The notes under the pieces: model-generated
The model's database searches: none
What the model was told of the DNA's origin: nothing
The model's input: only the letters and a program-made list of their open reading frames with translations
Shown: in pieces, positions 24,982 through 40,300 of the stretch
Position numbering within the stretch: the stretch's first letter is position 1
How the letters are laid out: the number at the start of each line of letters is the position of its first letter
Source: Acidithiobacillus ferridurans
Lineage (GTDB): Bacteria; Pseudomonadota; Gammaproteobacteria; Acidithiobacillales; Acidithiobacillaceae
NCBI RefSeq assembly: GCF_003966655.1
Contig: NZ_AP018795.1
Coordinates: 2,683,501 to 2,747,500 of the forward strand
DNA length: 64,000 nt
Direction: 5' to 3'
Translations under genes and position numbers: made by a program

Positions 24982-27135
24982 GTGAACCAGCAAAACATCT
25001 CCGCACTCATCTGGGCCGTGGCCGACTTGCTCCGGGGCGACTTCAAGCAATCCGAATATGGGCGGGTGATTCTGCCCTTCACCGTCCTGCGGCGACTGGA
25101 TTGCGTGCTCGCCCCCACGCGGGCGGCGGCCCTCGCCGAATACCGCGCAAAATCCGCAGCCAAGCTGCCCTTCGTGGAATTCGTCCGGCGTGCGGCCGGG
25201 CAGTCCTTTTTCAATCTCTTCCCCAGGACCTGCCGGGACTACTGGGTGACGCCGACAATCTGCGCAATAACCTGCAAGCCTATGTGCGGGCCTTTTCCAC
25301 GGACGTGCAAGACATCTTCACCCGCTTCGATTTTCCCGCCACCATCGAGCGGCTGCACAAGGCGGGGCTGCTGTATCTCGTCACCGAGAAATTCACCAGC
25401 CTCAACCTGCATCCCGACGCCCTCAGCAATTACCAGATGGGCCTGCTGTTCGAGGAACTCCTGCGGCGTTTCGCGGAGATGTCCAACGAAACGGCCGGAG
25501 AGCACTTTACGCCGCGGGAAGTCATTCACCTGATGGTGGAACTCCTGTTTACGGAAGATGACGCGGCGCTGGCCCGGGGTGGCATCGTCCGCACCTTGTA
25601 CGACCCGGCGGCAGGCACCGGCGGGATGCTTTCGGTGGCGGCGGAGCATCTGCACAGTCTCAATCCCGACGCCCGCCTGACCATGTTCGGCCAGGAACTC
25701 AATGACGAATCCTACGCCACCTGCAAAGCGGATATGCTCATTCGCGGCCAGGATGTGGCCAATATCGTTCCGGGGAACACCCTGTCCGACGACGGCCATC
25801 GCGGCAAGCACTTCGATTACATGCTGTCCAACCCGCCCTTCGGCGTCGAGTGGAAGAAAGTCGAGGCCACTGTCCGCGAAGAACACGAGGACATGGGCTA
25901 CCGGGGACGCTTCGGCCCCGGACTGCCGCGCATCTCCGATGGCTCCCTGCTGTTTCTCCTGCACCTGCTATCCAAAATGCGCCCAGAGAAGGAGGGCGGC
26001 AGCCGTATCGGCATCGTCCTCAACGGCTCGCCGCTGTTCACCGGCAGCGCCGGCAGCGGGGAGTCGGAGATTCGCCGCTACGTGCTGGAACAGGATTATG
26101 TGGAAGCCATCGTGGCGTTACCCACGGATATGTTCTTCAACACCGGTATCGCCACTTATGTGTGGATACTCACCAACCGCAAGCCGGAGGAGAAACGCGG
26201 GAAAGTACAACTCAATCGACGGTTCCGGTTTCTGGCGCAAGATGCGCAAGAGTCTGGGCTCCAAGCGCCGGGAACTCGCCCCGGAACACATCAAGGCGAT
26301 TTCGCAAATGCTGGGCGTCGGGGAGGCACTGGACCAGGCGGTACTCCTCGATGCCGAGGGCAAGGAGCGCACGCGGGTGGTGCTGTTCGAGGGCACTCCG
26401 GTACCGGAACCCGTAGACGGGGGTACCGTGAAAGTCCGTCCCGTCTCCAGGATATTTCGCATGACGGACTTCGGTTATCGCACCGTCACCGTGGAAAGGC
26501 CCCTGCGGCTGCGATTCCAGATGACTCCGGAACGTCTGCAGGAATACGAAGGAAAACTGCGGGAGAAACTGGACGGGAATGGGCGTGGACCGAGACGGGT
26601 CCGCAGCGTCGAGGCCCAGGCACAGGCCCTCCGTGAGATGGATGGGTTACTGGATGACGCCGAAGCCGTGTTCCAGGCGTTTGGAGACACCCCTGATGAC
26701 AACTGGAACACCCTGTGGCCGCGCATCGAGGGGATTCTGGAAGCCCGAGGCAGCCGCTATACCCCGGCAAGCCGCAAGGCGTTCCGGGACGCGTTCACGG
26801 AATCCTGCCCGGATGCGGCACCCGTGGAAAGCGGGAAGCGTAACGGCCCGAAGTATGAGCCGGATTCCGGGCTGCGGGACACGGAGAACGTGCCCCTGGG
26901 CGAGGACGTGTACGCGTATTTCCAGCGGGAAGTCCTGCCCCATGTCCCGGATGCGTGGATTGACGAATCCAAACGGGACGCAAAGGACGGCAAAGTGGGC
27001 GTAGTCGGGTATGAGATACCCTTCAACCGGCATTTCTACGTGTTCGAGCCGCCCCGGAGTCTGGCGGAGATTGATGCGGATTTGAAGGCGTGCACCGGGC
27101 GGATACTCCGAATGCTGGGGGAGATGTCGGCATAA
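24982..27135 (+). pseudogene. hsdM: Type I restriction-modification DNA methyltransferase HsdM, two frameshifts
   Basis: Adenine-N6 methyltransferase subunit, readable across three frames. It starts [20 protein letters not shown]. The frame shifts at the CCCC of 25221-25224 (one C short) into [13 protein letters not shown] and the catalytic domain, with SAM motif [16 protein letters not shown] and motif [10 protein letters not shown]. It shifts back at 26214-26215 (one extra A) into [17 protein letters not shown] and a long C-terminal helical region. Repaired, the product is about 718 residues, normal for large HsdM proteins. Stops in both broken frames would give inactive fragments unless the breaks are sequencing errors. 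Downstream a VapBC pair separates it from hsdS. Confidence 0.88.
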
Positions 27136-27224
27136 ACGATGAGGGCAACTTGCCGCCACCCAGCAAAATGGTAAGCTGGTTTCATGGATGGCGTTGGCTA
27201 GTACCCCACGAGCAAGGAGGCATC

Positions 27225-27530
27225 ATGAAAACCACCCTGGACTTACCGGATGAACTCATTCGCGAAGCGAAATTGCGGGCCGTCCTGCAAGGGCGCACGC
27301 TGCGCGATTTGGTGGCCGAGTACCTGCGACAGGGGATGGGAATGGCGGCGCCGAAACTGCCGACGTCACCCCCACGGGGTTCCGTGGTGGAGCTGGATGA
27401 GGGCGGTTTACCGTTCATCCGCGGACATGCCGACGCACCGGCGCTCCATATGAGCCTTGCTGAGTTGATTGCACTGGAACAAACCGCTCAAGCTGAGGAG
27501 GATGCGCGTCGTGCCGGGTTCCCTGTTTGA
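27225..27530 (+). CDS. VapB-type antitoxin
   Basis: A 101-residue protein starting MKTTLDLPDELIREAKLRAV, a ribbon-helix-helix N-terminus (residues 1-45) that binds operator DNA as a dimer. The C-terminal tail (LHMSLAELIALEQTAQAEED) should wrap the toxin. An AAGGAGG ribosome site precedes it. The PIN toxin frame begins before its stop, a standard antitoxin-toxin arrangement with autoregulation by the complex. The pair sits between hsdM and hsdS. Confidence 0.82.
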   Translation: MKTTLDLPDELIREAKLRAVLQGRTLRDLVAEYLRQGMGMAAPKLPTSPPRGSVVELDEGGLPFIRGHADAPALHMSLAELIALEQTAQAEEDARRAGFPV

Positions 27531-27960
27531 TACCAGCGTGTGGCTGGCGGTGGTATTCACCCGACATCCTTTCCACGAAAGCGCTCGGAAAGCGCTGCAG
27601 GAGGCGACGGCATCCTACCCTGCCGTATTTTGTCGGGCAACCCAGCAAAGTTTTCTGCGGCTGGCTTCTACGCCGACGCTGTTCAAAGCCTATGGAGTAG
27701 ACAGCATGAGCAACAGGGATGCTTTAGTCGCGTTGGATGCCCTGCAGTCTTCTCCGCGTGTTTGCGTTCGCGAAGAGGCTCCTGACGTTTTCTCCCTCTG
27801 GCGGATACTGGCCACCCGCGACACCGCCTCTCCCAAGGTGTGGATGGACGCCTATCTTGCCGCCTTCGCACTGGCCGGAGGGTTACGCCTCGCCACTCTG
27901 GACGGTGATTTCAAGAACTTCACCGCACACGGCCTGGATTGGGTTTTGGTGAACGCGTGA
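27502..27960 (+). CDS. VapC-type PIN-domain toxin
   Basis: A 152-residue PIN-domain ribonuclease. Acidic active-site residues are visible in SLFDTSVWLAVVF (residues 7-19), around NRDALVALDAL, in VWMDAYLAAFALAGG and in LATLDGDFKNF. VapC toxins cut tRNA or rRNA when VapB is degraded. The ATG at 27502 touches the AGGAGG inside vapB; the GTG at 27511 has better ribosome-site spacing, so the true N-terminus may be three residues shorter. It overlaps the antitoxin gene by 29 bases. Confidence 0.85.
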   Translation: MRVVPGSLFDTSVWLAVVFTRHPFHESARKALQEATASYPAVFCRATQQSFLRLASTPTLFKAYGVDSMSNRDALVALDALQSSPRVCVREEAPDVFSLWRILATRDTASPKVWMDAYLAAFALAGGLRLATLDGDFKNFTAHGLDWVLVNA

Positions 27961-27986: not shown

Positions 27987-28100
27987 TGGAAAGACGTAAC
28001 CAAGGGCAGCAAGGTGGGCATCATGGGGTGTGAGATATCGGGTATCCGGCCTTTCTACGTGTTCGAGCCGCCCGGGAGTCTGGCGGAGGTGGCGATATGA
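27987..28100 (+). pseudogene. Duplicated hsdM 3'-end remnant in front of hsdS
   Basis: The 37 codons ending at TGA 28098-28100 translate to GSKVGIMGCEISGIRPFYVF followed by EPPGSLAEVAI. This matches the C-terminus of the upstream HsdM (GKVGVVGYEIPFNRHFYVF, EPPRSLAEIDADL). The DNA shares the exact run TTTCTACGTGTTCGAGCCGC. The TGA overlaps the hsdS ATG (ATGA), so this piece appears to keep the original hsdM-hsdS junction, with the VapBC pair lying between the two hsdM tails. Confidence 0.8.
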
Positions 28101-29422
28101 CATATCCACGTTATCCAAAATACAGGGAATCGGGTGTCGAGTGGTTGGGGGATGTGCCTGAGGGGTGGGGAGTAGTCAGAACAAGGTGGCTGTTTTCCAT
28201 AAAGAAGAATATCTCTGGAGAGTTGGGTTATGACATTCTATCTGTAACGCAACAAGGAATTCGAATAAAAGACATTGAAGGAAATAATGGTCAGTTTTCT
28301 ATGGATTACGCTAAATACCAGATAGTTGACGTTGGTGATTTTGTAATGAATCATATGGATTTATTGACAGGATACGTCGATATATCCAAATTTCTCGGGG
28401 TTACGAGCCCAGACTACAGAGTATTTACGATAAGAAAGCCAACAGACTGTCACTATAAGTATTTCCTATATGTATTTCAAATGGGTTACAAAAATAAGAT
28501 TTTCTATGCGTTTGGTCAGGGCAGTTCTCATTTAGGAAGGTGGAGGCTTCCCGCGGAGCAATTTAATAATCTTTCCTTGCCATTTCCTCCTCTCTCTGAA
28601 CAAAAAACTATCGCCGCATTCCTCGATGCCGAAACCGCCCGCATAGATACCCTCATTACTGAATACGAAACCCTCATCGACTTGCTGAAAGAGAAACGGC
28701 AGGCCCTCATCAGCCAAGCGGTGACGAAGGGGCTGAACCCAGATGCTCCGATGAAGGATTCCGGGGTGGAGTGGCTGGGGGATGTACCGGAGCATTGGAG
28801 CGTGAGGCAGCTTCGCTTTATCGCAAATCTGAATCCATCCAAAAGCGAATGCTCAAACATTGGTGAAGATGAGGAGGTCTCATTTTTACCAATGGAGGCT
28901 ATTGGGGATGACGGCTCGCTAAATCTTGAGCATGTGAAACCAATCAACGAGGTTAATTCTGGTTACACATATTTCCGCAATGGAGATGTGACTATCGCTA
29001 AGATTACGCCCTGCTTTGAGAATGGAAAAGGCGCAGTAATGAGTGGACTTAAAGGGCACATAGGGTTTGGCACAACTGAGTTAATTGTTGTGAGGCCGGA
29101 GCAGAATATATCCATTAGCGAATATATCCACTTGATTTTTGTTTCTGCATATTTTCGTAAATTAGGTGAATCATGGATGTATGGTGCTGGCGGGCAAAAA
29201 AGAGTACCCGACGAATTCGTGCGTAATTTCAAGATAGGGGTTCCACCTGTCGATGAACAACACGCCATCGCCGCATTTCTCGATACAGAAACTTCCCGCA
29301 TGGACATCCTCGTTCAGGAAGCGGAAAACGGCATCAATCTACTCCGGGAGCGCCGGATGACGCTCATTTCAGATGCGGTGACAGGAAAAATTGATGTGCG
29401 TGACTGGAAAGGAGTTGCGTAA
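28097..29422 (+). CDS. hsdS: Type I restriction-modification specificity subunit HsdS
   Basis: A 441-residue subunit that reads the two halves of the DNA target. Its two halves are built alike: each starts with SGVEWLGDVPE (about residues 11 and 222), continues with a variable target-recognition domain, and ends in a conserved spacer helix (SEQKTIAAFLDAETARIDTL and DEQHAIAAFLDTETSRMDIL). The recognition domains are clearly more AT-rich than hsdM and hsdR, as expected for horizontally exchanged specificity modules. It is the only fully open hsd gene here. It starts in an ATGA overlap with the hsdM-tail remnant, and its TAA overlaps the next ATG. Confidence 0.93.
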   Translation: MTYPRYPKYRESGVEWLGDVPEGWGVVRTRWLFSIKKNISGELGYDILSVTQQGIRIKDIEGNNGQFSMDYAKYQIVDVGDFVMNHMDLLTGYVDISKFLGVTSPDYRVFTIRKPTDCHYKYFLYVFQMGYKNKIFYAFGQGSSHLGRWRLPAEQFNNLSLPFPPLSEQKTIAAFLDAETARIDTLITEYETLIDLLKEKRQALISQAVTKGLNPDAPMKDSGVEWLGDVPEHWSVRQLRFIANLNPSKSECSNIGEDEEVSFLPMEAIGDDGSLNLEHVKPINEVNSGYTYFRNGDVTIAKITPCFENGKGAVMSGLKGHIGFGTTELIVVRPEQNISISEYIHLIFVSAYFRKLGESWMYGAGGQKRVPDEFVRNFKIGVPPVDEQHAIAAFLDTETSRMDILVQEAENGINLLRERRMTLISDAVTGKIDVRDWKGVA

Positions 29423-30226
29423 TGGAATATTTGGCAAAAAAGCACGGCTTGTGGCTGGAAGGGGCGTATTCTCACTTACGCCTCATAACTCCACCGCCTG
29501 TTGTGCTCCCTTTTAGCTTGAATAGTGGCGTGAACGGTAATGTTTATGTTTTCTGTGAGGACTATTTTGATTCTGCGACTCGTGTTCGTAGAGGTCGGCT
29601 TTACCAATCTTCTGGTAGAGATGGAGACCGCTTCGAAAATGTGAGCCTTTTCCCATATCCCAGTCCATCCAAAGGTTGTCCAATAGATGAAATATATGAG
29701 ACTGCAAACCTGAATATCAAAGCAGGACAAGAAGTAATTCTCGGCGACAATCTGGCGCAAACATGTTGGACCGTTGTTCTGGCTGAACGCAGAGGGCGTG
29801 ACGCCTATTACATCACACTTAAGTCGAAAACCTTCCTTGGCGTATTACCGGAATTATTATCCGAAGAGATTCCACCAAACAACCGCGAGGATATCCACAG
29901 AGCCATGAATGCCGTCGTGGAGGCCGCATCCGTGCAAGCCCCCCAGCCAGTTATCGATGCCTGCCGGGTTGCCGCTACACATATGCTGCTTGCTATGTAT
30001 CCGCAAATCACTAAAAAACGAGCTGGGGCAAATAGTCGGGAAGCTGGACAATGGGTCGTGTATCCAGTCTGCCGCTAATCTCATTAACAAGCTGCACTCT
30101 CGCGCAAAGCCATCGGGAGCCGCTAATAACGATACCCGCCCCGTGTCGCAGCGCGACGCCGATTTGGCCGTGAGCGCAATCGCGTTTCTCTTGCAAGACT
30201 TCGGATGGGCGGAGCAAGCATTATGA
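29422..30226 (+). pseudogene. Unknown protein coupled to hsdS, frameshift in an A6 run
   Basis: An unrecognised soluble protein starting MEYLAKKHGLWLEGAYSHLR, with its ATG inside the hsdS stop (TAATG). The frame ends at 30078. The continuation NELGQIVGKLDNGSCIQSAA, running to a stop at 30226, is in the next frame. Removing one A from the AAAAAA at 30013-30018 joins both into about 267 codons. The joined frame then overlaps the following gene by 4 bases (ATGA), which argues that the longer protein is the original. An A6 run can also slip in transcription. Alternatively this is sequencing error or decay. Function is unknown; position suggests an accessory role in the restriction locus. Confidence 0.6.
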
Positions 30227-30957
30227 AGCCGCTAGCTACAACATGGTGTACCTATTATGCAGGATTTGCCGAGCAGCCTCCCGATGAACTGCTAGACATC
30301 GGTTTTCTCAACGAAAAATACCGTTCTCGACCATTTTACTACCCCATGGCGAAAGGGAATATTCGGGAGTTTCCCACCGTTGAACAGTGGTATAACTATG
30401 TACAAAGTCTCCGCATTCCACCCCATCAGATACCCCTTCCTTATCTTGATGCCTTCGATGAGGCCTTAAGGGCATTATTCATGACCTACCTTCTCCCGGA
30501 GTTTTGTAAAATGGCGGAGATGAAGGCGTTATCGACCCTGGAAGCCGCCCTGAAAGACGCGTATCATCATCAAATGTGTAAGCAAACGGCCCGGAAAACG
30601 AAGCCCAAAGCCGGCGAAAGTTCTACAGGGTCCGTACACCGATGTGCCGCGTTGGCAGATTGTTTGGAGTGGGCTGAACAACACGACGGTCTAGAGCCAA
30701 ACCTGTTTGATAAGTCAATTGGCCAGAGAAGGCCAGAAGCATTGAATGTCATCCGGGATAAACAGATGCATGGTAAACTTGAGGAGATGTTTCCGTGGGG
30801 TGGGTTATTTGAAGTTATCAAAAGTACCGTTGGCTACGCCTTCCGAAATTGGACCATCTATGACATTCATCAGTTGAGGGCCGTAAATATGGCCACCCGT
30901 GCGGGATTCCCCGACTCTTCCTTTGGGCAGTGGCAAGATTTTCCTATAACAGCGTGA
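30223..30957 (+). CDS. Unknown protein, last gene of the hsdS operon
   Basis: A 244-residue soluble protein starting MKPLATTWCTYYAGFAEQPP at an ATGA overlap with the gene before. A longer upstream start (30205) is less likely. I recognise no family. It is predicted helical, rich in aromatic residues, with a charged patch (ARKTKPKAGESS) near residue 125 and Cys-containing segments (HQMCKQT, VHRCAALADCLEW). The coupled order hsdS - unknown - unknown suggests joint expression with the specificity subunit. Confidence 0.6.
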   Translation: MKPLATTWCTYYAGFAEQPPDELLDIGFLNEKYRSRPFYYPMAKGNIREFPTVEQWYNYVQSLRIPPHQIPLPYLDAFDEALRALFMTYLLPEFCKMAEMKALSTLEAALKDAYHHQMCKQTARKTKPKAGESSTGSVHRCAALADCLEWAEQHDGLEPNLFDKSIGQRRPEALNVIRDKQMHGKLEEMFPWGGLFEVIKSTVGYAFRNWTIYDIHQLRAVNMATRAGFPDSSFGQWQDFPITA

Positions 30958-31057: not shown

Positions 31058-31897
31058 ATGAATGAAAAGTTCTCTAAGAGACACGGATACCAGCAAGCGC
31101 ACGAAACAGAGATTATTGTGCGGCAAGACGCTCCGCATGAACTGCGTGGAATTGTTGTTCAGCTTGCTTACGATTGCGGATTTCAACCGAAAAGCCTTCG
31201 CTCACTTGTATGCCGCATACTAAGAAAACGGTCGGATTCAAACAATTGGTCTGAGTACCCAAACATGGACGATGAAGTACATGACCTCGTTGATGGCTGT
31301 GACTGGTATCGGGTCTACGACATCATAGAGGATATCTCCGGTGCCATGCGCGAGACCCCTTACTCTTATGAACCCCAAAAGTTCGAGAACGAAATAAACG
31401 ACTACTTCCTCGAAAATGGTATTGGCTGGAAATTATCGAACGGCAAGGTTAAGATGCGCGGCCCCGAAGTATTCGAGGGAATTATAGACACTGCGGAGTG
31501 GCAGCTTGAAGCAAAAAACTTCAGTAACGCCAGGAATGAACTCCATGAGGCGCGCCGTGATTTGTCTCGGCGTCCTGCCCCTGATATCACTGGTGGAATT
31601 CAGCATTCAATGGCGGCGCTCGAATGTGTGGCTCGTGAGGCTTGTGGTGACGCCAAGGCCACTCTCGGCGATATCATGAAACGTTACCCGGATATCGTTC
31701 CTCGGCCTCTTGATGAGGCCATCGCAAAAGCCTGGGGTTACGCTTCGGAAAATGCACGCCATATCCGCGAAGGGAGGGAGCCAACATTCGAGGAAGCGGA
31801 GTTGGCTGTCGGCATGGTTGCTGCCCTCGCAACATATTTGGGCGAAAACATGGGGTATAACTATGCGCTCAGGCATGACAAACCAAAAGCGGCGTGA
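31058..31897 (+). CDS. AbiJ-NTD4-like abortive-infection-type protein
   Basis: A 279-residue protein. The N-terminal 110 residues (FSKRHGYQQAHETEIIVRQD, then WYRVYDIIEDISGA) resemble the AbiJ N-terminal domain 4. The C-terminal part (IQHSMAALECVAREACGDAK, ATLGDIMKRYP) resembles the helical C-terminal domain found with AbiJ/abortive-infection proteins. A phage-defence role is inferred from those domains and from its place beside a restriction system. The attC-like site begins inside the last 14 codons, so the final residues are encoded by recombination-site DNA. Confidence 0.7.
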   Translation: MNEKFSKRHGYQQAHETEIIVRQDAPHELRGIVVQLAYDCGFQPKSLRSLVCRILRKRSDSNNWSEYPNMDDEVHDLVDGCDWYRVYDIIEDISGAMRETPYSYEPQKFENEINDYFLENGIGWKLSNGKVKMRGPEVFEGIIDTAEWQLEAKNFSNARNELHEARRDLSRRPAPDITGGIQHSMAALECVAREACGDAKATLGDIMKRYPDIVPRPLDEAIAKAWGYASENARHIREGREPTFEEAELAVGMVAALATYLGENMGYNYALRHDKPKAA

Positions 31898-31917
31898 CCA
31901 TTAGCTTTATGTTAGTT
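31855..31917 (+). repeat. attC-like recombination site 1
   Basis: R''-like GTATAAC at 31855, TGCGCTCA core, terminal TTAGCTTTATGTTAG with R' at 31911. It is 63 bp and overlaps the 3' end of the AbiJ-like gene. Confidence 0.75.
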
Positions 31918-31936
31918 TTATCAAAGAGGGAACGCC

Positions 31937-32353
31937 ATGCAATTTGAAGAACAAGTCGTAATCGCAGCCTCTGTTGAAAAGGTCTTTTCCCTGTACGCAG
32001 ACGTAAAAGGTTGGTCTTTCTGGGACTCTGACGTAAAGACTTCCTCCATTGATGGGGAATTCGTTTCCGGAGCCGGTGGCACCCTTCAACCGTCAAGCGG
32101 TCCAAAGGCTAAAATTGCTTTCACAGAAGTTGTTCCCAATCGTTCGTTCACGGTTGAAAGCAAGCTGCCTTTGTGTGTCATGCGCTTTGAACATGAGTTG
32201 TCAAGTCATTTGGGCGAAACCATAGCAGTGCATCGGATAGCCTTCGAGGGGATGCTTTCGCCGTTGTTTGGTCGACTTATCGGGTCGCAAATTAAAAAGG
32301 GCTTGCCTCATACGCTCCAAGGATTGAAACGTGCTGCTGAACACCAAAGTTGA
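31937..32353 (+). CDS. SRPBCC-family protein
   Basis: A 138-residue protein starting MQFEEQVVIAASVEKVFSLY with an AGAGGGA ribosome site. The N-terminal strand-helix pattern, DVKGWSFWDSDVK, and the C-terminal helix (FGRLIGSQIKKGLPHTLQGL) fit the START-like SRPBCC fold, a hydrophobic-ligand-binding helix-grip. The ligand is unknown. It fills one cassette between attC sites 1 and 2. Confidence 0.78.
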   Translation: MQFEEQVVIAASVEKVFSLYADVKGWSFWDSDVKTSSIDGEFVSGAGGTLQPSSGPKAKIAFTEVVPNRSFTVESKLPLCVMRFEHELSSHLGETIAVHRIAFEGMLSPLFGRLIGSQIKKGLPHTLQGLKRAAEHQS

Positions 32354-32410
32354 TATGGCGGTCAAGCGGAACGCTCCGCTTTTGACGCGTCACGTACCCT
32401 TACGCTAGGT
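32349..32410 (+). repeat. attC-like recombination site 2 (degenerate)
   Basis: The hairpin AAGCGGAACGCTCCGCTT is followed by CCCTTACGCTAGG; the R' box reads GCTAGGT instead of GTTRRRY. The left R'' box is poorly conserved. Confidence 0.55.
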
Positions 32411-32423
32411 AGGCAGGCAACCT

Positions 32424-32540
32424 ATGGGATTTACGCTGGATAAAGTTGTACCGTGGGGACGTTCGTATGACGAAACGGGCGCAAAAAAACAGCGCGCCGC
32501 TTATCGTTACGTTAGGGATACATCGGATGTTACTTGCTGA
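32424..32540 (+). pseudogene. Cassette with truncated methyltransferase-like start
   Basis: A 38-codon ORF. The first 17 residues (MGFTLDKVVPWGRSYDE) resemble the N-terminus of a class I SAM-dependent methyltransferase family often carried in cassettes. The remaining codons run through attC site 3 and stop at 32540. The body of the enzyme is missing, so this is read as a deletion remnant that left the gene start joined to the recombination site. The methyltransferase identification is from memory of the family's N-terminal pattern. Confidence 0.45.
32461..32517 (+). repeat. attC-like recombination site 3
   Basis: It contains GGGCGCAAAAAAACAGCGCGCC and the terminal TTATCGTTACGTTAGGG, with R' at 32511. 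The R'' box is degenerate. Confidence 0.6.
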
Positions 32541-32578
32541 CGTGCCAGAACACCTGATTTGAAGGAGGGCTATACGAG

Positions 32579-33058
32579 ATGACCGTGAACATAACCATAC
32601 AGAGAGCAACCATAAACGATGCACCTGAAGTGGCCGTCATGGTTGGCGAGTTGCTAAATGAAATTATGAGCACTATTGGAATACATGCCTTCAAGTTCAG
32701 TCTTGATGAAACAATGGCCAGGCTCAAAGATTTCATCTACCGAGAGAAATATTTCGTTTTTGTTGCCCAAAGCGAGAATCAGTCTTTGGTTGGCTTCATT
32801 GCGCTTTATGAAAGCTACGCGTTATATGCCGAAGGCGCCTTCGGCACCATCCCAGAGCTCTTTGTTCGTCCGGGGTATCGTTCACAAAACGTGGGGCAGC
32901 GCCTTATGGAACAGGCAAAGAAATTCGGCAATTCGCGTGGCTGGAAGCGCCTAGAAGTTACCACCACTCCACTCCCACAGTTCGATAAAACAATAGCATT
33001 TTACGAGCGGGAGGGGTTCGCAATTACAGGTGGTCGCAAGTTGAAGGTGGCACTATGA
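32579..33058 (+). CDS. GNAT-family N-acetyltransferase
   Basis: A 159-residue acetyl-CoA-dependent acetyltransferase. The acetyl-CoA loop motif is ELFVRPGYRSQNVGQRLMEQ (about residues 96-115), followed by KRLEVTTTPLPQFDKTIAFY and FYEREGFAITGG at the C-terminus. A GAAGGAGG ribosome site precedes the ATG. Its TGA overlaps the cupin ATG (ATGA) with no attC between, so both belong to one two-gene cassette. The substrate is unknown. Confidence 0.88.
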   Translation: MTVNITIQRATINDAPEVAVMVGELLNEIMSTIGIHAFKFSLDETMARLKDFIYREKYFVFVAQSENQSLVGFIALYESYALYAEGAFGTIPELFVRPGYRSQNVGQRLMEQAKKFGNSRGWKRLEVTTTPLPQFDKTIAFYEREGFAITGGRKLKVAL

Positions 33059-33465
33059 GCAACCAGTCTGACATTGCTGTCGAGAGGGGTGCGCCAAAAA
33101 AACGACGTGCCGCTGACCTCGAGCGCTATGTTGCATCCATAGTGATTAACCTGGAAGGTGTGATTTCGGCGAATTGGCGAGACCTTCCCACGAAGGAAAT
33201 CTTTCCGGGGATTCGTGCGCGTATCCTCTGGCAAGGCACGAACGGCGCCAAGGCCCAAATTCTTGAAATCGACCCTGGTGCCAAGTTCACAAAGCTCGAT
33301 ACGCATTTCCCGGGTCCTGAAGAAGTATTCGTGGTATCTGGCGTATTTAACGACGGTGTCCACGATTATCCGGCAGGTACTTTCATCCACAATCCGGCTG
33401 GCTCGGCGCACGTTCCTCAGTCAAAGCAGGGGTGCGTAATCTTCGTGTTCTTCCCCCGGGGTTGA
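33055..33465 (+). CDS. Cupin-domain protein (ChrR-like)
   Basis: A 136-residue single-cupin protein. Cupin motif 1 is visible in THFPGPEEVFVVSGVFND, where the usual His/Glu metal ligands lie, and motif 2 in YPAGTFIHNPAGSAHVPQSK. The pattern resembles the C-terminal cupin of ChrR anti-sigma factors, but the zinc-binding anti-sigma N-terminus is absent. It is translated coupled to the GNAT gene. The biochemical role is unknown. Confidence 0.78.
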   Translation: MSNQSDIAVERGAPKKRRAADLERYVASIVINLEGVISANWRDLPTKEIFPGIRARILWQGTNGAKAQILEIDPGAKFTKLDTHFPGPEEVFVVSGVFNDGVHDYPAGTFIHNPAGSAHVPQSKQGCVIFVFFPRG

Positions 33466-33474
33466 GCTCATGCA

Positions 33475-33537
33475 ACATAACACTGCGCTCAGTCATGGCG
33501 AGCAAAAATCGCACAAACCCTTAGCTACACGTTGGTC
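33475..33537 (+). repeat. attC-like recombination site 4
   Basis: R''-like ACATAAC, then CTGCGCTCAGTCATGGCGAG, and the terminal CCCTTAGCTACACGTTGGTC with R' at 33531. Very similar to sites 1 and 6. Confidence 0.8.
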
Positions 33538-33575
33538 AGATTAGGATTAGTAGTAACACTCGCGAGGAAAAGGGG

Positions 33576-34355
33576 ATGACCCATACACGCATGACAAGAA
33601 GTCAATTTCACCACGACGACCTGATGTTGTCATACCTCGATACGGGTGGGGAGGGCCAGACACTGATTGCCCTCCACGCGCTTTGGATGGAGGCCGCCAC
33701 CTATGCCCGTCTTGCAGATGCACTATCACCCGAGTGGCGCGTCATCGCCATGGACCAGCGCGGACACGGTTATTCTGACCATGCGCTCAGTTATACACGC
33801 AAAGACTATATAGGCGATGTGGCCGCGCTGGTTGAACATCTTGAGGTGGACAAAGTCGTCCTGCTTGGTAACTCGCTGGGCGGCGTAAACGCCTACCAGT
33901 TCGCTGCGTGGCATCCCGAGCGTGTAAAGGCCGTCGTCATTGAAGACATCGGCGCCGCTCCGGATGCTAATGCGTCGTTTGTGTTAGCCTGGGAGGGTAT
34001 CTTTCCAAGCCGTGAAACGCTCGAAGAACGCATCGGGCAACGGCTGGCGCCCTACCTCCTGGATTCCTTTCGCTCTACCCCAAACGGCTGGCGGCTTGCG
34101 TTCGAGCCTCGTGAGATGCTTGAATCGCAGCTTCAGCTCAATAGCGACCACTGGGCCGACTGGCTCGCGACTAGATGCCCGGCTCTCTTGGTCCGGGGTA
34201 AGGAGAGCCGGATTACGACGCAAGACCACTGCGAGCAAATGGCGGCGCGACGGCCCAATACTCGTCTCGTTACGCTTGATGGAGGGCACGTAGTCCATCA
34301 GGACAATCCGAATGGCTTTGCGGAGATTGTGCGGGAGTTCTTGCATGACCTTTGA
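33576..34355 (+). CDS. Alpha/beta-fold hydrolase
   Basis: A 259-residue hydrolase. The oxyanion-hole region is ALHALWMEA, then MDQRGHGYSDH. The nucleophile elbow is LLGNSLGGVNA (Ser about residue 99). The catalytic His is in LDGGHVVHQDNPNGFAEIV near the C-terminus, and an acid likely lies in the preceding strand. A GAGGAAAAGGGG ribosome site precedes the ATG. The substrate is unknown. It is the sole gene of its cassette. Confidence 0.88.
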   Translation: MTHTRMTRSQFHHDDLMLSYLDTGGEGQTLIALHALWMEAATYARLADALSPEWRVIAMDQRGHGYSDHALSYTRKDYIGDVAALVEHLEVDKVVLLGNSLGGVNAYQFAAWHPERVKAVVIEDIGAAPDANASFVLAWEGIFPSRETLEERIGQRLAPYLLDSFRSTPNGWRLAFEPREMLESQLQLNSDHWADWLATRCPALLVRGKESRITTQDHCEQMAARRPNTRLVTLDGGHVVHQDNPNGFAEIVREFLHDL

Positions 34356-34390
34356 GTTTATACGTTTGTTCACTAATCGTGCGCGGCTTC

Positions 34391-34456
34391 GCCCAACATT
34401 TCCATCGAGAGGGACGCGTAAAAAACGGCACGCTCCTTATCCTTACGGAGTTAACT
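34391..34456 (+). repeat. attC-like recombination site 5
   Basis: R'' GCCCAAC (exact RYYYAAC) at 34391, the imperfect palindrome GGGACGCGTAAAAAACGGCA, and R'-like GTTAACT at 34450. Confidence 0.65.
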
Positions 34457-34462
34457 AGAAAT

Positions 34463-34780
34463 ATGCACTGGTTATATCTGGCAATAGCAATCGTGTCCGA
34501 GGTTGTTGCAACTTCTGCACTCAAGGCAGCAAATGGCTTTACTCGCTGGGAGCCATCGCTTCTTGTTGTGGCCGGATATGCGTCAGCGTTCTATTTTCTT
34601 TCGCTTGCGCTACGCACCATCCAGCTTGGTGTGGCCTACGCTATCTGGTCTGGTGTCGGTGTTGCCTTGATTATACTGGTTGGTTGGGTTGTTTACCGTC
34701 AGCCTCTTAATGTGGCCTCATTCGTCGGTATCGCGCTCATTGTCGCTGGCGTGATAGTGCTCCACATTTTTTCCAAATAG
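34463..34780 (+). CDS. Small multidrug resistance (SMR) transporter
   Basis: A 105-residue, four-helix proton-coupled drug exporter of the EmrE/Qac/SugE family. It starts MHWLYLAIAIVSEVVATSAL, with the essential membrane Glu at about E13. It continues with GYASAFYFLSLALRTIQLGV and AYAIWSGVGVALI, the SMR signature. A long upstream extension in frame covers attC DNA and is rejected. SMR genes (qac) are classic integron cargo. It likely exports quaternary cations; it shares its cassette with the next gene, 5 bases away. Confidence 0.93.
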   Translation: MHWLYLAIAIVSEVVATSALKAANGFTRWEPSLLVVAGYASAFYFLSLALRTIQLGVAYAIWSGVGVALIILVGWVVYRQPLNVASFVGIALIVAGVIVLHIFSK

Positions 34781-34785
34781 GTTAT

Positions 34786-35154
34786 ATGCCCTCAGAAAAC
34801 GCGCTTGCTATTTATCTCCAGGAGATGGAGGAGTCCTTGCTCCAGTCCAGTGTTCGCAAGTCCGAGCGCGTTTCGCAATTGCTGGCCGAGAGGTTCTTCG
34901 AGTTCGGTAGCTCTGGGCGTACGCTCAGCAAGGAGCAAATTATTGCCTCGCTGCATGCCGAGTCGCCAGTCAACTGCACTGCTACAGAGTTCAAGGTCCA
35001 ACTTCTGGACCCACAAACCGCGCTCGTCACATATCGTGCGTGTCGCCACAGCGAGCCACCGGTGTTCACGGTACGTAGTTTCATCTGGCAACAACGGGAA
35101 GGGCTGTGGCAAATGGTCTTTCATCAAGGTACCATTACGACTGCGCCCACATGA
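34786..35154 (+). CDS. NTF2-like (DUF4440/SnoaL-like) protein
   Basis: A 122-residue protein with the cone-shaped NTF2 pattern: N-terminal helices (LQEMEESLLQSSVRKSERVS, then LLAERFFEFGSSGRTLSKEQ) and C-terminal strands (LVTYRACRHSEPPVFTVRSF, WQQREGLWQMVFHQGT). It is close to the DUF4440 group of small unknown enzymes or ligand-binding proteins. It lies 5 bases after the SMR gene with no attC between, making a second two-gene cassette. Confidence 0.78.
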   Translation: MPSENALAIYLQEMEESLLQSSVRKSERVSQLLAERFFEFGSSGRTLSKEQIIASLHAESPVNCTATEFKVQLLDPQTALVTYRACRHSEPPVFTVRSFIWQQREGLWQMVFHQGTITTAPT

Positions 35155-35162
35155 GAACAATC

Positions 35163-35224
35163 ATCCACCCTGCGCTCAAGCGTGACAGCGCAAAAGCACG
35201 CGGCCCCTTAGCTACACGTTGGGC
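35163..35224 (+). repeat. attC-like recombination site 6
   Basis: CCTGCGCTCAAGCGTGACAG, then CCCCTTAGCTACACGTTGGG. R' GTTGGGC at 35218 is a perfect GTTRRRY. R'' reads ATCCACC. Confidence 0.85.
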
Positions 35225-35250
35225 GTCAATACAACATTATTGACTTGGTT

Positions 35251-35676
35251 ATGGAATTCAATCTCTCAACTGATATTGAAAGCATTTCATGGAAAGAGCT
35301 AGCTTGTCTTTTCGAGCAGGCACCTTTGGGTAAAAGGCGTGAGCCTGAAATACTAGAAGTCGCTTTCCGTAACAGCCTGCTAAGAGTTTTTGCCTTTCAC
35401 GGTGCAAAGCTCGTCGGTGCGGGTCGCGCGCTATCTGACGGTGTGTGGCGCGCGGCAATTTATGATGTGGCGGTCTTGCCGGAGTATCAGGGCAAAGGAA
35501 TCGGACATAAGATTGTTCGCCATCTCATTGATGCTGCGAAAGTTGATGTCATCATGCTGTATGCGGTGCCGGGCAAGTCTAAATATTACGAGCGCTTTGG
35601 GTTCCGAAAAATGGCCACTGCCATGGCAATCATGCCCAATGAAGAAGAAGCAAGAAAACGGGGCCTACTCGAATGA
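35251..35676 (+). CDS. GNAT-family N-acetyltransferase (second)
   Basis: A 141-residue GNAT. It has VLPEYQGKGIGHKIVRHLID as the acetyl-CoA binding motif (about residues 75-94), IYDVAVLPEY before it, and YYERFGFRKMATAM at the C-terminus. The ATG at 35251 is used rather than the TTG two codons upstream. The substrate is unknown. It is the single gene of its cassette, and the stop is immediately followed by a shortened attC. Confidence 0.88.
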   Translation: MEFNLSTDIESISWKELACLFEQAPLGKRREPEILEVAFRNSLLRVFAFHGAKLVGAGRALSDGVWRAAIYDVAVLPEYQGKGIGHKIVRHLIDAAKVDVIMLYAVPGKSKYYERFGFRKMATAMAIMPNEEEARKRGLLE

Positions 35677-35677
35677 T

Positions 35678-35696
35678 GCCCAACAACACGTTAGGT
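35678..35696 (+). repeat. Shortened attC-like site 7
   Basis: R'' GCCCAAC and R' GTTAGGT are only 5 bases apart (19 bp total), so the internal hairpin is missing. Both end boxes fit the consensus, suggesting an internal deletion of a once complete site. Confidence 0.55.
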
Positions 35697-35915
35697 ATCC
35701 TGCGATTTCTCTTTGAGCCCGAGCGCCTGCCCGCGGATGTCGTCGAGCGAATAGCCGACGGCAGAAATCGGGTATGGTTCCGCATCCTGAGCCTCTGGGA
35801 AATCGCCATCAAACAGGCCCTTCGGCGCGATGCGTTCGATTTCGCTCGTGAAAACGTCAATGGCCTAAAGACGCACGTTGAACAGAAGACCTTTGCTGCG
35901 GGTACCAAGAAATGA
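35691..35915 (+). pseudogene. PIN-domain toxin remnant
   Basis: The region downstream of attC-like site 7 encodes PERLPADVVERIADGRNRVW and LSLWEIAIKQALRRDAFDFA. This matches the middle of Sll0205-type PIN (VapC) toxins. The N-terminal DTHxLLW segment that carries the first catalytic Asp is absent, as though cut away at the recombination point, and the C-terminus diverges into unrelated residues ending at 35915. It is not expected to be active. Confidence 0.65.
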
Positions 35916-36021: not shown

Positions 36022-36318
36022 TTGGCTGAAATAATTATTCCTATAGATACTGCTTGCCCTATTTGCGGGGAAGGAACTCTTATTCTTCACATCGAGGGTG
36101 ACACGATGGAATATAAGGGAATAACTCGAACTATACCGTCCCAATATAAGGTCTGTACCGCATGCGGCAGTGAGCAGGCGGACATTGATGACCTGCGAGT
36201 CAACAAAAGAGCCATGCAAGCATTCAAGAAAAAAGTGGATGAGTTATTGACGGGGCAAGAAGTAAAAACTCTTCGCGAAAATTCGCATAAAAAACCTAGT
36301 GATGAGTCCCTGCTCTAG
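36022..36318 (+). pseudogene. MqsA-type zinc-finger antitoxin, truncated
   Basis: A 98-residue frame from a TTG. It has two CxxC zinc ligand pairs (DTACPICGEG and YKVCTACGSEQAD) and the linker NKRAMQAFKKKVDELLTGQE, as in MqsA/YgiT-type antitoxins. After about residue 84 the usual helix-turn-helix DNA-binding domain is missing and the sequence ends in unrelated codons. No adjacent MqsR toxin is visible. It is a likely relic, although the zinc domain alone could fold. Confidence 0.65.
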
Positions 36319-36353
36319 CTATGAAATTGGGTCTTTAGATCAGGAACGTACTC

Positions 36354-36583
36354 ATGATTACGGTGATCTCCTTAGAAGCCCAGAACAAGTTTGGACAGTT
36401 GTTGAAAAGGTACAACGGGAACCGGTGGTTATCACTCGTCACGGACGGGCGACTGCCTACATGGTGTCGCCACAAAACATGCCGGGACATCAGAATTTGC
36501 AGGCTGCACGGCGCAAGCACAGTCAAGCGGTTGCCGAATTCGCGTGCACGGGTAGAAAACATGGCCACGAATCCCCATTCTAG
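36354..36583 (+). pseudogene. Broken first copy of Phd/YefM antitoxin
   Basis: The start (MITVISLEAQNKFGQLL) is in one frame. The rest (KVQREPVVITRHGRATAYMV, ARRKHSQAVAEFA) is in another; the break lies near 36401-36410, where one base is missing compared with the intact copy. Base for base it parallels the gene at 36625, so the two are a diverged tandem duplication. The 3' third diverges and the toxin-binding tail is lost. Confidence 0.8.
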
Positions 36584-36624
36584 CTATAATAGCCAGAATG
36601 GATGTTTGTATTAGGAGAGAACCC

Positions 36625-36909
36625 ATGATTACGGTGACTTCGGTTGAAGCCCAGAACAAGTTCGGACAGTTGCTGGATACCGTGCAGCGCGAGCCGGTGG
36701 TCATCACCCGGCACGGGCGTGCCACGGCGTTTATGGTGTCCCCGCAGGACATGCAGGACCTCCAGGACTTGCAGGCTGCTCGGCGCAAGCGCAGTGAAGC
36801 GGTTGCCGAATTCGAGGCACACTTCGCCAGAACCGATGCCCATCTTACACCGGCTGCGCGGGAGCTGACGGATGAGGATGTGGTGCGCCTGGTGAAAGAA
36901 TCCCGTTGA
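36625..36909 (+). CDS. Phd/YefM-family antitoxin
   Basis: A 94-residue antitoxin starting MITVTSVEAQNKFGQLLDTV, with REPVVITRHGRATAFMVSP, the Phd/YefM DNA-binding fold (residues 1-55). A helical acidic tail follows (LTDEDVVRLVKESR) that would block the toxin. The AGGAGAG ribosome site is well placed. The stop overlaps the toxin's TTG start. Phd-type antitoxins usually repress their own promoter together with the toxin. Confidence 0.88.
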   Translation: MITVTSVEAQNKFGQLLDTVQREPVVITRHGRATAFMVSPQDMQDLQDLQAARRKRSEAVAEFEAHFARTDAHLTPAARELTDEDVVRLVKESR

Positions 36910-37340
36910 GTCGGCCGCAACGGATTGTCATAGATACCAGCACCCTGGTGGGGGCGATGTTACATCCAGATTCCGTGCCGCGCCGCGCTTTCCTGACCGC
37001 AGTCCGGATAGGTGAGCTCTGTGTCACTGAAGCCACCTTGCAGGAAGTGCAGGAAGTGCTACAGAGGCCGAAATTCGACCGATTTATTCCGCTACAAGAC
37101 CGGCTGGATTTTCTCACCTTGGTATCCGGCCACGTCAGCATGTGGGAGATTCACGTCTCCAGCGAGCAGGCTGCGACAGGCGTATGCCGGGATGAGAAAG
37201 ATACGAAATTCCTCTCTCTGGCGTTGTCTTGCCGGGCGGACGTTCTCATTTCCAGCGATGGGGATTTGCTGGTCCTGCACCCTTGGCAAGGTGTGCCCAT
37301 TCTGACGCCATCAGCATTTCTGGAAAAAGTGAACTCATGA
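36906..37340 (+). CDS. PIN-family toxin paired with Phd antitoxin
   Basis: A 144-residue PIN-domain protein of the 'putative toxin component, PIN family' group. It has IVIDTSTLVGAMLHPDSVPR (first acidic residue about D10), VTEATLQEVQEVLQRPKFDR, CRDEKDTKFLSLALSCRADV and ISSDGDLLVL, giving the acidic RNase site. A TTG start overlaps the antitoxin stop (TTGA). Its own TGA overlaps the hsdR ATG (ATGA), so the toxin and the restriction subunit are translationally coupled. Confidence 0.88.
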   Translation: MSRPQRIVIDTSTLVGAMLHPDSVPRRAFLTAVRIGELCVTEATLQEVQEVLQRPKFDRFIPLQDRLDFLTLVSGHVSMWEIHVSSEQAATGVCRDEKDTKFLSLALSCRADVLISSDGDLLVLHPWQGVPILTPSAFLEKVNS

Positions 37341-40300
37341 GTCTGCACCAGGAAATCCACTTCGAGTCCGAAATCTGCGCCGACATGGCGGCTTCCGGCT
37401 GGCTCTACACGCCACCTGAAGGCACCACCCTGAGCCCGGATGCCTCGGGCTACAACGCCGAATTCGCCATTTTTCCCGATGACTTGCGCGACTGGATGGC
37501 CGCTTCTCAACCGGAAACCTGGGAGAAGCTGGTTCAGGGGCACGGCGACAGGGCACTTACCGAAGTGATGGCCCGCCTGCGCAAGGCGCTGGACACCCCA
37601 GGGCACTCTTTACGTCCTGCGCCACGGCATCGAAATGCTGGGCTTGCGGCATCCCATTGCGCTGGCCCAGTTCAAACCCGCCTCGGGCATGAACCAGGAA
37701 CTTGCGGCCCGCTACCAGGCCAACCGGCTCAGGGTGGTGCGGCAAGTCCATTACTCGGCGCACGACACGGGCCGCAGCCTGGACCTCGTACTGTTCCTGA
37801 ACGGTCTGCCCGTCGCCACGGCGGAACTCAAGACGGATTACACCCAGGCGGTAGAGAACGCGGTCTATCAATACAAGCGGGACAGGCATCCCCGGCCGCC
37901 GGAGCGGAACACGCCCGAGCCCCTGCTGAGCTTTCCCGGTGGCGCGCTGGTACATTTTGCCGTCAGCAACTCCGAAGTGCGGATGACCACGAAGCTCGCG
38001 GGCATGGACACCCGTTTCCTGCCCTTCAACCAGGGGAATCAGGGCGGTGCCGGGAATCCCGCCAATCCGAGCGGCATCGCCACCGACTATCTCTGGAAAT
38101 CCGTCTGGGCACCGACGTCCTGGCTGCAGATTCTGGGCCGCTATCTGGTACCAGTGCGGGACAAGAAGAAGCAACTGAAAGGCGTCGTTTTTCCCCGCTA
38201 CCACCAACTGGATTCCACGCGGAAAATCGTTTCCGCCGTACTCCGGGACGGGGCGGGCGACAAATACCTCATCCAACACTCGGCGGGCTCCGGCAAAACC
38301 CACAGCATTGCCTGGACCGCGCACATGCTGGCGGAATTGCATGACGAGACGGACCGCAAGATATTCGACAGCGTGATTGTCGTCTCGGACCGGACGGTAC
38401 TCGATGAACAGCTCCAGGAAGCCCTCATGGCCCATCAGCGGACGGCGGGCGTCGTGGCCGTCGTCAAAGGGGAGGGGGCTTCCAAAAGCCGGGAACTCTC
38501 CGAAGCCCTGGCCGCCAACAAGCAGATTATTGCCTGTACCCTGCAAACCTTCCCATTCACGCTGCAATACATCCAGGAACTCGCCGCCACGCGGGGGAAG
38601 CGTTTCGCCGTAGTGGCCGATGAGGCCCATTCCTCCCAGACGAACGAAACCGCGGCACGTCTCAAAGTTATACTCTCCGGAAGCATTCCCTTGCAGGGCG
38701 CCGCCACCGCCAGAGACGGGGCCGCACTCGAGATGGACGAGGTGGAGGACGTCTCCGTCGAAGACATGCTCGCCGCCGAGATGGAAGCCCGGGCCGCCGG
38801 TAAGGAAACCGGGATTACCTATGTGGCGTTCACCGCCACCCCCAAGGACAAGACCCTGCAACTGTTCGGCACCCGGCCATACCCGGAACGGTCGCCCAGT
38901 GACGAAGACAACAAGCCGGAACCTTTTCATGTGTATTCCATGCGCCAGGCCATCGAAGAGGAATTTATCCTCGACGTGCTGAAAAACTACACGCCTTACC
39001 AGTTGGCCTTCCAGTTGGCCCACGAGACCAGTGGTCAGCAGGAGGGCAAAAAACCCCCCGTCGTGGATGCCGGTACCGCCACGGCGGGCATCATGGGCTG
39101 GGTGCAGCTGCACAGCTATAACATCGCCCAGCACGTCCAGATTGTGGTGGAGCACTTTCGCAAATTCGTGATGCCGCTCTTAGATGGACAAGCCAAGGCC
39201 ATGGTGGTGACCAGCTCCCGCCTGGAAGCGGTACGCTGGCATCTGGCCATGCGCAAGTACATCGCCTCCCGTGGCTACGCCCTCAATACCCTTGTCGCCT
39301 TCTCCGGGGAGGTGGAAGATACGGAATCCTTCGACAAGCCGGTATCGGAAACCAGCCGGGACCTGAACCCCGGCCTGAAAGCACGCAGCATCCGCAAGGC
39401 GTTCAGTTCCGAAAATGGTCATCGCGGCGAGTACGCCATTCTCCTCGTCGCCAACAAGTTCCAGACGGGCTTTGATGAACCCCTGCTCTGCGGGATGTAC
39501 GTCCACAAACGCCTGGATGGCATTCAGGCGGTGCAGACCCTCTCCCGCCTGAACCGGGCTTATCCCGGCAAGGACACCACCTATGTCGTGGATTTTGTGA
39601 ACAAGGGAGAGGACATCCTCAAGGCGTTCCAGCCCTACTATGAAACGGCGGAACTGGCCGGCGTCAGCAATCCGGACAGCATTTATGATTTGCGCGCCAA
39701 ACTCGACGCCCAGGAGTTTTATACCGCAGAGGACGTGGAGGCCGTGGTAAGCGCGGTGCTCCAGGGTGGCAAGCAGGCCCGCGTGGATGCGGTGTTGCGC
39801 CCCGTGGCGGATGCCCTCCTGCAGCGCTTTGCCAAGGCTCGCGTCCTCTGGCAGCAGCATCAGCCCGATGACGGGGACAGCGCTCCGGCACAGGCCGCCA
39901 AAGCCGAAATGGACGCCCTGTGGCTATTCAAGAAGGACATCGGCACCTATGTCCGCAGTTACAGCTTTCTCTCGCAGATTTTCGACTACGGCAACACCGA
40001 CATCGAAAAACGGGCGATTTTCTTCAAGCTCCTGCAGCGCTTGCTGACCTTTGGTCGGGATATCGAGGAGGTGGACCTCTCCGAACTGGCCCTGACTCAC
40101 CACACCCTGAAGGAGCTGGCGACGGAGAAGCTCTACCTCATCGGCGGAGAAAAGCTGACCCCTTCGGAGGCCGGGGCGGCATGGTGCGGGACAAGCACCG
40201 GGAGAGCCTCGACGCCATCATTCAGCGCGTCAACGAGATTTTTGTGGGACACATCAGCGATAATGACAAGCTGGTGTATGTGAATGACGTCATCATGGGC

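What the first reader, a model, noticed from the sequence alone, without database searches (positions are those of the whole stretch)
31058..35696. Integron-type cassette array embedded inside a type I restriction-modification locus
Seven attC-like sites with recurring cores (TGCGCTCA, TTAGCTACACGTTGG) delimit small plus-strand genes of typical cassette classes. The array lies between hsdS and hsdR, and no IntI is visible. Seen: the sites and gene order. Known: arrays lacking an integrase (CALINs) occur in chromosomes. Inferred: cassettes were inserted into, or the R-M genes rearranged around, a shared defence locus, so the cassettes may be expressed by read-through from the hsd operon.
Basis: partly seen in the sequence, partly recalled or inferred. 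Interest (0 to 1): 0.8.

Follow-up and report, generated by a model that had tools for sequence, protein, structure and literature searches.

The report
Decayed integron cassettes inside restriction-modification locus
In what appears to be the acid-loving bacterium Acidithiobacillus ferridurans, a worn-out row of integron gene cassettes lies inside a broken type I restriction-modification operon, about a million bases from an intact integron integrase; such detached arrays are known, but this location is unusual.

Summary
An attC covariance model that contains no window site puts its six best hits in the 64-kb window (both strands) all inside 31,855-35,696, on the expected strand, at gene ends. 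A model from other genera finds one clear site, 35,163-35,224, E 2.4e-7. DNA of the row recurs piecewise, in other orders, in other Acidithiobacillus genomes; 7 of 28 homology edges lie within 5 nt of a G^TT crossover point, 0.5 expected. It has an intact integron integrase with seven attC sites 1.05 Mb away: the row is a CALIN in a cell that still has intI. Five of its seven folded sites fold like shuffled sequence, unlike integrase-linked ones, so I infer it is mostly immobile. Two related R-M loci have one gene between hsdS and hsdR and no attC hit. hsdM and hsdR are frameshifted. A second two-attC array sits just downstream of another type I hsdR of this genome; whether the link is general is statistically weak. 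Acidithiobacillia CALINs are already published. Read-through expression was not testable.

The parts
24954..27135 (+). hsdM (type I methyltransferase), two changes of reading frame by my reading
   Evidence: PADLOC MTase_I in two overlapping frames; three-frame translation
27090..27960 (+). small ORF 27090-27530 (weak DUF6364 match, presumed antitoxin) and PIN toxin gene 27469-27960; in genus-mate G006 the PIN gene breaks at about 27,647 into an attC
   Evidence: Pfam DUF6364 1.2e-4, below cut-off; Pfam PIN; BLAST, sequence
28097..29422 (+). hsdS (specificity subunit)
   Evidence: PADLOC Specificity_I 7.7e-120
29422..30957 (+). two accessory ORFs (29422-30078, 30205-30957), no family found
31058..31897 (+). 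cassette 1: AbiJ_NTD4 / PDC-S32 candidate defence gene; its last residues, from about 266, are encoded by the attC
   Evidence: Pfam 6.5e-25; PADLOC PDC-S32 1.9e-25, match ends at residue 265
31855..31917 (-). attC S1 (folding strand given)
   Evidence: R2 E 1.1e-4 in the window
31937..32353 (+). cassette 2: SRPBCC / polyketide cyclase-like
   Evidence: Pfam 3.2e-9
32345..32410 (-). attC remnant S2, crossover GTT changed to GCT
   Evidence: R1 partial hit E 0.32 over the 4-kb region; same 3' half precedes the methyltransferase-like gene in G006
32397..32474 (+). relic of a methyltransferase-like cassette: attC end, leader and first codons, 96% identical to the longer gene of G006
   Evidence: BLAST to L149; gene L149:5968-6651 has only a weak Methyltransf_11 match, 8.3e-4, just under cut-off
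32455..32517 (-). attC remnant S3
   Evidence: R2 partial E 1.1
32579..33058 (+). cassette 3: GNAT; 79% identical relative in the intI-linked region of the same genome; homologues in G005 and G001 begin 4 nt after an attC
   Evidence: Pfam; G000:C1:1672548-1673031; L155 and L158
33066..33136 (-). attC S4, read through as N-terminus of the next ORF
   Evidence: R2 33066-33131 E 0.0054
33055..33465 (+). cassette 4: cupin; domain starts at residue 40, after the attC-encoded part
   Evidence: Pfam Cupin_7 5e-14
33475..33537 (-). attC S5
   Evidence: R2 E 0.017
33576..34355 (+). cassette 5: alpha/beta hydrolase; 92% identical stretch in G006
   Evidence: Pfam
34391..34456 (-). attC S6
   Evidence: R2 E 0.03
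34463..34780 (+). cassette 6: Qac-like SMR transporter, no attC of its own seen; followed by crossover heptamer GTTATAT (34781)
   Evidence: Pfam 1.8e-31, match from residue 38 of the longer ORF; homology edges 34777-34781
34786..35154 (+). cassette 7: DUF4440; 94% identical stretch in G006, edges 34783-35220
   Evidence: Pfam
35163..35224 (-). attC S7, the best by score
   Evidence: R1 E 2.4e-7, R2 E 5.4e-10; but folds like shuffles, z +0.7
35245..35676 (+). cassette 8: GNAT
   Evidence: Pfam
35678..35696 (-). attC remnant S8, 19 nt (outer boxes only)
   Evidence: R1 E 0.05, R2 E 0.12
35697..35915 (+). fragment that the array abuts, VapC-like by my reading only; homologous copy in G006 contig C31 runs further upstream
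   Evidence: frame reading; 94.6% to L150:10718-10883; no Pfam, NCBIfam or PDB match
36022..37340 (+). toxin-antitoxin genes: MqsA-like antitoxin, degraded copy of the phd gene, phd, PIN (PIN stop overlaps hsdR start)
   Evidence: 79% DNA repeat; the degraded copy itself has no family match
37337..40540 (+). hsdR, two changes of reading frame by my reading
   Evidence: PADLOC REase_I, HSDR_N, translations

Best explanation
A decayed chromosomal cassette array (CALIN) of about eight integron cassettes lies in the variable slot between hsdS and hsdR of a type I R-M operon. Integron integrase, acting in trans from the intact integron 1.05 Mb away or from an ancestor's, inserted or shuffled the cassettes through attC x attC or attC x non-attI recombination (inferred). 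Afterwards point changes and deletions eroded the attC sites, so the row is now largely fixed; by score site 35163-35224 is the likeliest remaining substrate (inferred, its fold does not support it). Cassettes being plus-strand and downstream of hsdM-hsdS could ride on the operon transcript (untested). Shown: the sites, the genes, homology edges at crossover points, other cassette orders in relatives, the intI elsewhere, related R-M loci without an attC hit.
For: Covariance model hits and their clustering. Control: the model from other genera finds seven sites beside intI in the own genome at 36-52 bits, six of which I had picked beforehand by pattern and fold. DNA of the row matches 7 of the 16 other genus genomes searched; in one of the seven (G011) only attC-like pieces of 54-65 nt. 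GNAT homologues in G005 and G001 start 4 nt after an attC. 7 of 28 homology edges lie within 5 nt of a crossover point against 0.5 expected; 0.1% of shifted placements reach it. In G006, whose DNA left of and including the hsdM 3' end matches the window at 93-95%, a row hydrolase-attC-methyltransferase-like-attC-SMR abuts the PIN gene, so array and R-M locus were together before the two lineages parted, moved together, or met twice. Intact intI, alignable with IntI4 of known structure. G007 and G016 have hsdS, one ORF, hsdR, and no attC hit.
Against: Most window sites are weak one by one: the model from other genera is clear for one of eight. Of seven window sites folded as single DNA strands, five give z -1.0 to +0.7 and the two partial ones -1.8, against -2.1 to -3.6 for four of the seven intI-linked sites. 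No attC or attI was seen at the left end, so AbiJ is a cassette only by its 3' attC; the locus of its best homologue (56%, another genus) has no attC hit. 21 of 28 homology edges are not within 5 nt of a crossover point. No orthologous empty site at the nucleotide level was found: the array-free loci G007 and G016 have HsdR only 44-45% identical.
Confidence: 0.87

Rival explanations
1. The row is the broken-off distal part of an integron whose integrase was lost in place: an ancestral integron stood next to this R-M operon and was dismantled.
For: [quoted passage not shown] An intI fragment occurs elsewhere in the genome, C1:2036236-2036385 with an in-frame stop, with an attC hit 0.8 kb away (R1 7.3e-6, R2 2.3e-4).
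Against: None of the eight intI-model matches of the own genome lies in the window. For G006, 5 of its 13 matches are listed, none on contig C24 (list cut off).
Confidence: 0.3
2. The cassettes are functionally coupled to the R-M operon: integron cassettes are repeatedly recruited into or beside type I R-M operons, which supply transcription, as a cargo site for defence and stress genes.
For: A second two-attC array lies just downstream of another, uninterrupted hsdR in the same genome, same direction, followed by a HigB-like gene; nine related loci have no attC hit. AbiJ is a candidate defence gene. 3 of 11 attC loci away from intI in three complete genomes lie within 10 kb of an N6_Mtase gene, 0.49 expected, 1.1% of random placements reach it.
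Against: Without the window locus 2 of 10, 7% reach it; at 5 kb and 20 kb the excess is not significant. The attC list behind the count is incomplete: 150 of 1,632-2,111 first-look candidates per genome were scored, and a 24.8-bit site known is missing from it. The third case (G004) is not co-oriented. PADLOC hits 1 of the 5 cassette proteins given, of 8. hsdM and hsdR here are frameshifted.
Confidence: 0.15
3. Not cassettes but ordinary genes with chance palindromes between them.
For: Weak single-site scores with the model from other genera; poor folding.
Against: Clustering of the best hits, best site E 2.4e-7, piecewise recurrence elsewhere and edges at crossover points.
Confidence: 0.02

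Closest known systems
[quoted passage not shown]
   Same: Two or more attC sites with cassettes and no adjacent intI; IntegronFinder 2.0 reports 8 CALINs and 2 complete integrons in 11 Acidithiobacillia genomes (PMC9024848, passages), so this or a like element may have been counted (inference).
   Different: Sites so eroded that a model from other genera is clear for only one; seated between hsdS and hsdR.
Xanthomonas CALINs away from the ilvD integron
   Same: Genomes that keep an intI can hold small arrays at distant loci; CALINs can be mobilised in trans (PMC12444791, passages).
   Different: Loci named in the passages I saw are near lamG, secF, recD, an oxidoreductase gene and others, not a type I R-M operon.
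Integron cassette insertion at genomic attG sites (Loot et al. 2024; seen only as a citation in PMC12444791)
   Same: A possible way for intI to seed arrays away from attI.
   Different: No attG junction was identified here.
Integron cassettes that carry anti-phage genes (Darracq 2025, Getz 2025, Kieffer 2025; seen only as references in PMC12444791)
   Same: An AbiJ-type candidate defence gene next to an attC.
   Different: Here the array also sits inside a defence operon; activity untested.

Membership tests
[quoted passage not shown]
   R2: two sites below E 0.01 in the whole-genome search (2718663 and 2715355), five below 0.05 in the window; with model R1 only one clear
CALIN | no integron integrase nearby | tested here: met
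   none of the eight TIGR02249 matches lies in the window; the full-length intI is 1.05 Mb off
CALIN | detected by IntegronFinder's own covariance model | not testable with these tools
   that model is not in the tool set; own models built instead
complete integron (other locus, C1:1662-1673 kb) | intI plus attC array | tested here: met
   TIGR02249 469.6 bits; seven attC
mobile gene cassette | single gene plus attC, moves as a unit with edges at G^TT | tested here: met
   shown best for the SMR and DUF4440 genes, not shown for AbiJ, SRPBCC, cupin and the second GNAT, which have no DNA match
functional attC site | stable hairpin of the bottom strand | tested here: not met
   seven window sites folded, z -1.8 to +0.7; four intI-linked controls -2.1 to -3.6
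functional type I R-M system | intact hsdM, hsdS, hsdR | tested here: not met
   two frame changes each in hsdM and hsdR by reading; if the strain is JCM 18981 the assembly is PacBio only, so sequencing error is not excluded

The most novel reading that the evidence does not exclude
In Acidithiobacillus, type I R-M operons are a recurrent landing place for integron cassettes delivered in trans by a distant integrase, so that restriction operons act as a second, promoter-bearing cassette platform that also gathers toxin-antitoxin and abortive-infection genes.
Probability: 0.13. Interest if true: 0.65.

Novelty: new member of a known kind. Interest (0 to 1): 0.42.

Why it matters
It shows cassettes settling outside their integron and inside or beside defence operons: at this locus in two lineages, and at two R-M operons of one genome. 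If the link is general it would give cassettes an expression site far from the integron promoter and join two defence-gene reservoirs; if not, it is a clear case of how an array decays away from its integrase.

Tried and rejected
Strict attC consensus scan: no true site in the row. Rfam: only a tRNA in the window. Relatives of AbiJ in genome contigs: none (own genome may be left out there); in 321 class genomes: 5 with a match, own included. Empty-site search in G002 and G008: only R-M remnants. Recent exchange between this row and the intI array: not supported, the shared GNAT is only 79% identical. The IS66 element shared by both loci (99.8%) as carrier of the array: not supported, one copy in the window, 7 kb right of the row, none to its left in that comparison. 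Functional association with R-M: statistics weak. The accessory ORFs between hsdS and hsdR: four comparisons of window against G007 and G016, no relation. Database support for the VapC-like fragment at 35697: none. PDB relatives of the methyltransferase-like gene of G006: none.
Full report
What was checked. The window is 2,683,501-2,747,500 of a single-contig genome of 2,921,399 bases, exactly the size published for Acidithiobacillus ferridurans JCM 18981 (PMC6256440, whole text); the closest named integrase relatives are also Acidithiobacillus. The identification rests on these two facts.

Sites. I built two attC covariance models on the bottom strand. R1 has 34 sites from integrase-bearing loci of records not named Acidithiobacillus; R2 has 38 sites, 24 of them from Acidithiobacillus, none from the window. 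As a control, R1 finds seven sites beside the intI of the same genome at 36-52 bits; six of them I had picked beforehand by pattern and fold, one is new. In the window R1 finds 35163-35224 at E 2.4e-7, the 19-nt remnant 35678-35696 at 0.05 and nothing else below 0.7. R2 ranks 35163-35224, 31855-31917, 33066-33131, 33475-33537, 34391-34456 and 35678-35696 as the six best of the whole window; outside 31058-35696 the first hit has E 2.1. Restricted to 31.8-35.75 kb, the eight best distinct places for R1 are these six plus 32363-32381 and 32469-32505. Random placement of the six best hits in this stretch and on one strand has a chance of about 2e-8 (rough, the stretch being defined by the hits).

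Genes and edges. The eight ORFs between the sites match AbiJ_NTD4, SRPBCC, GNAT, cupin, alpha/beta hydrolase, SMR, DUF4440 and GNAT. The AbiJ match to PADLOC PDC-S32 stops at residue 265, where the attC begins, and the cupin domain starts after an attC-encoded stretch: attC sequence has become coding at both. DNA of the row was sought in 17 genus genomes: 8 have a match, own included; in G011 only attC-like pieces of 54-65 nt. The matches cover single genes or parts, in other orders: in G006 contig C24 hydrolase, methyltransferase-like gene, SMR; in C31 EthD, DUF4440, flavodoxin-like and GNAT genes. GNAT homologues of G005 and G001 begin 4 nt after an attC (L155:7696-7762, L158:736-793). Of 28 edges of homology blocks of 100 nt or more, 7 lie within 5 nt of a crossover point (0.54 expected; 0.1% of shifted placements reach it), 10 within 12 nt and 11 within 20 nt; the other 17 lie further off, many inside genes. 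AbiJ, SRPBCC, cupin and the last GNAT have no DNA match in that comparison. Window 32397-32474 is what is left of the methyltransferase-like cassette that is longer in G006; its name rests on a Pfam match just under the cut-off.

The integrase. The genome has a 327-residue IntI (TIGR02249, 469.6 bits, cut-off 265) alignable over 15-326 with IntI4 of known structure (4e-85); the catalytic residues (recalled: R, K, H, R, H, Y) stand in conserved blocks of that alignment. It faces seven canonical attC. The window array is 1.05 Mb away. The GNAT at 32579-33058 has a 79% identical relative near that array, so exchange between the two loci is not recent.

State of the row. As single DNA strands, five of seven window sites fold no better than shuffles (z -1.0 to +0.7; the best-scoring 35163-35224 has +0.7) and the two partial ones give -1.8, while the four intI-linked sites tried (of seven) give -2.1 to -3.6. 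This speaks against present mobility of most cassettes, and also against my suggestion that 35163-35224 may still work, which rests on its covariance score alone.

The R-M locus. Order: hsdM, a small ORF (weak DUF6364 match, presumed antitoxin) and PIN, hsdS, two unknown ORFs, the row, a fragment that looks VapC-like to me but has no database match, MqsA-like antitoxin, degraded phd copy, phd, PIN, hsdR. Frame changes by reading: two in hsdM, two in hsdR; if the strain is JCM 18981, the assembly is PacBio only. HsdR was sought in the genus: the nearest long relatives are in G016 (44%) and G007 (45%). There one ORF each lies between hsdS and hsdR, unrelated to the two ORFs of the window, and neither locus has an attC hit. 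In G006, DNA left of hsdM and the hsdM 3' end match the window at 93-95%; then the PIN gene breaks at 27,647 into an attC (R2 E 0.0054) and the hydrolase cassette. Hence array and R-M locus were associated before these lineages separated, travelled together, or met twice. The right end of the row abuts the VapC-like fragment, whose homologue in G006 contig C31 runs further upstream.

A second case. R2 over the whole genome lists 14 hits: seven at intI, two in the window, and others at 912303, 1463753, 1502564, 1502992 and 2508286. The list is a lower bound: 150 of 1,998 first-look candidates were scored, and a 24.8-bit site near 2.037 Mb known is not in it. The pair at 1.5026-1.5031 Mb lies directly downstream of an uninterrupted hsdR of 1022 residues, in the same direction, with a carbon-nitrogen hydrolase gene, an ORF of YTGVGGG-type repeats and a HigB-like gene. 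Nine related loci in nine genus-mates (L206-L212, L215, L216) show no attC hit. In L215 the blocks on either side are 19 bp apart and in L208 and L216 393 bp, against 5.7 kb here and about 1-4 kb in L206, L207, L209, L210 and L212; L211 has no second block (hsdR is partial in L215 and L216). Across three complete genomes, 3 of 11 attC loci without a nearby intI lie within 10 kb of an N6_Mtase gene (1.1% by chance), 2 of 10 without the window locus (7%), and the excess is not significant at 5 or 20 kb. I counted intI fragments as 'nearby intI' too, which removed clusters in G004 and G014 before the count. This is a lead only.

Literature. CALINs are described in PMC9024848, which reports 8 of them in 11 Acidithiobacillia genomes (passages). 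PMC12444791 reports CALINs at loci away from the usual one in about half of Xanthomonas genomes (passages). One A. ferrooxidans genome paper mentions integron integrases in its genome overview (PMC6736930, passage). In PMC4226512, PMC10561277 and PMC10322971 the word integron occurs only in references, only in a general sentence, or not at all (find results). Searches with Acidithiobacillus and integron, with CALIN and restriction-modification, with hsd terms and gene cassette, and with Acidithiobacillus and defence terms (titles and abstract starts of the rows listed, which were 20 of 33, 5 of 5, 12 of 14 and 10 of 49) showed no report of an array between hsdS and hsdR; that is not proof of absence.

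Verdict. The thing is a decayed CALIN of a group already known for CALINs, in an unusual seat. What is new here, as far as I could see, is the seat, its presence in two lineages, and a second array beside another type I R-M operon of the same genome.

Noticed in passing
G000:C1:1502564-1503072 (L205:7565-8073): Second two-attC cassette array directly downstream of an uninterrupted type I hsdR; no attC hit at nine related loci.
   Followed up: partly
42861-45337: IS66-family element, 99.8% identical to one inside the intI-linked array (L010:5278-7754).
   Followed up: partly
28002-28087: 82% repeat of the hsdM 3' end (26983-27069) just before hsdS, flanking the small ORF-PIN pair, as if that pair had been inserted with a duplication.
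   Followed up: no
36328-36814: Tandem duplicate of a phd antitoxin gene (79% identical), one copy degraded.
   Followed up: no
L012:6237-7294 (G000:C1:2036236-2037294): intI fragment with an in-frame stop and an attC hit (R2 2.3e-4) 0.8 kb away: likely remnant of another integron.
   Followed up: no
L213:2733-2790 and L214:4001-4058: Single attC hits 1.2 and 0.8 kb from an N6_Mtase gene in two other Acidithiobacillus genomes, divergent orientation.
   Followed up: no
L205, minus strand, about 7966-7640: Cassette ORF encodes a glycine-rich YTGVGGG-type repeat protein.
   Followed up: no
L152:2270-2317 and window 32519-32567: The 49-nt leader before the GNAT gene stands before the SMR gene in G013; it may be a shared expression signal.
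   Followed up: no
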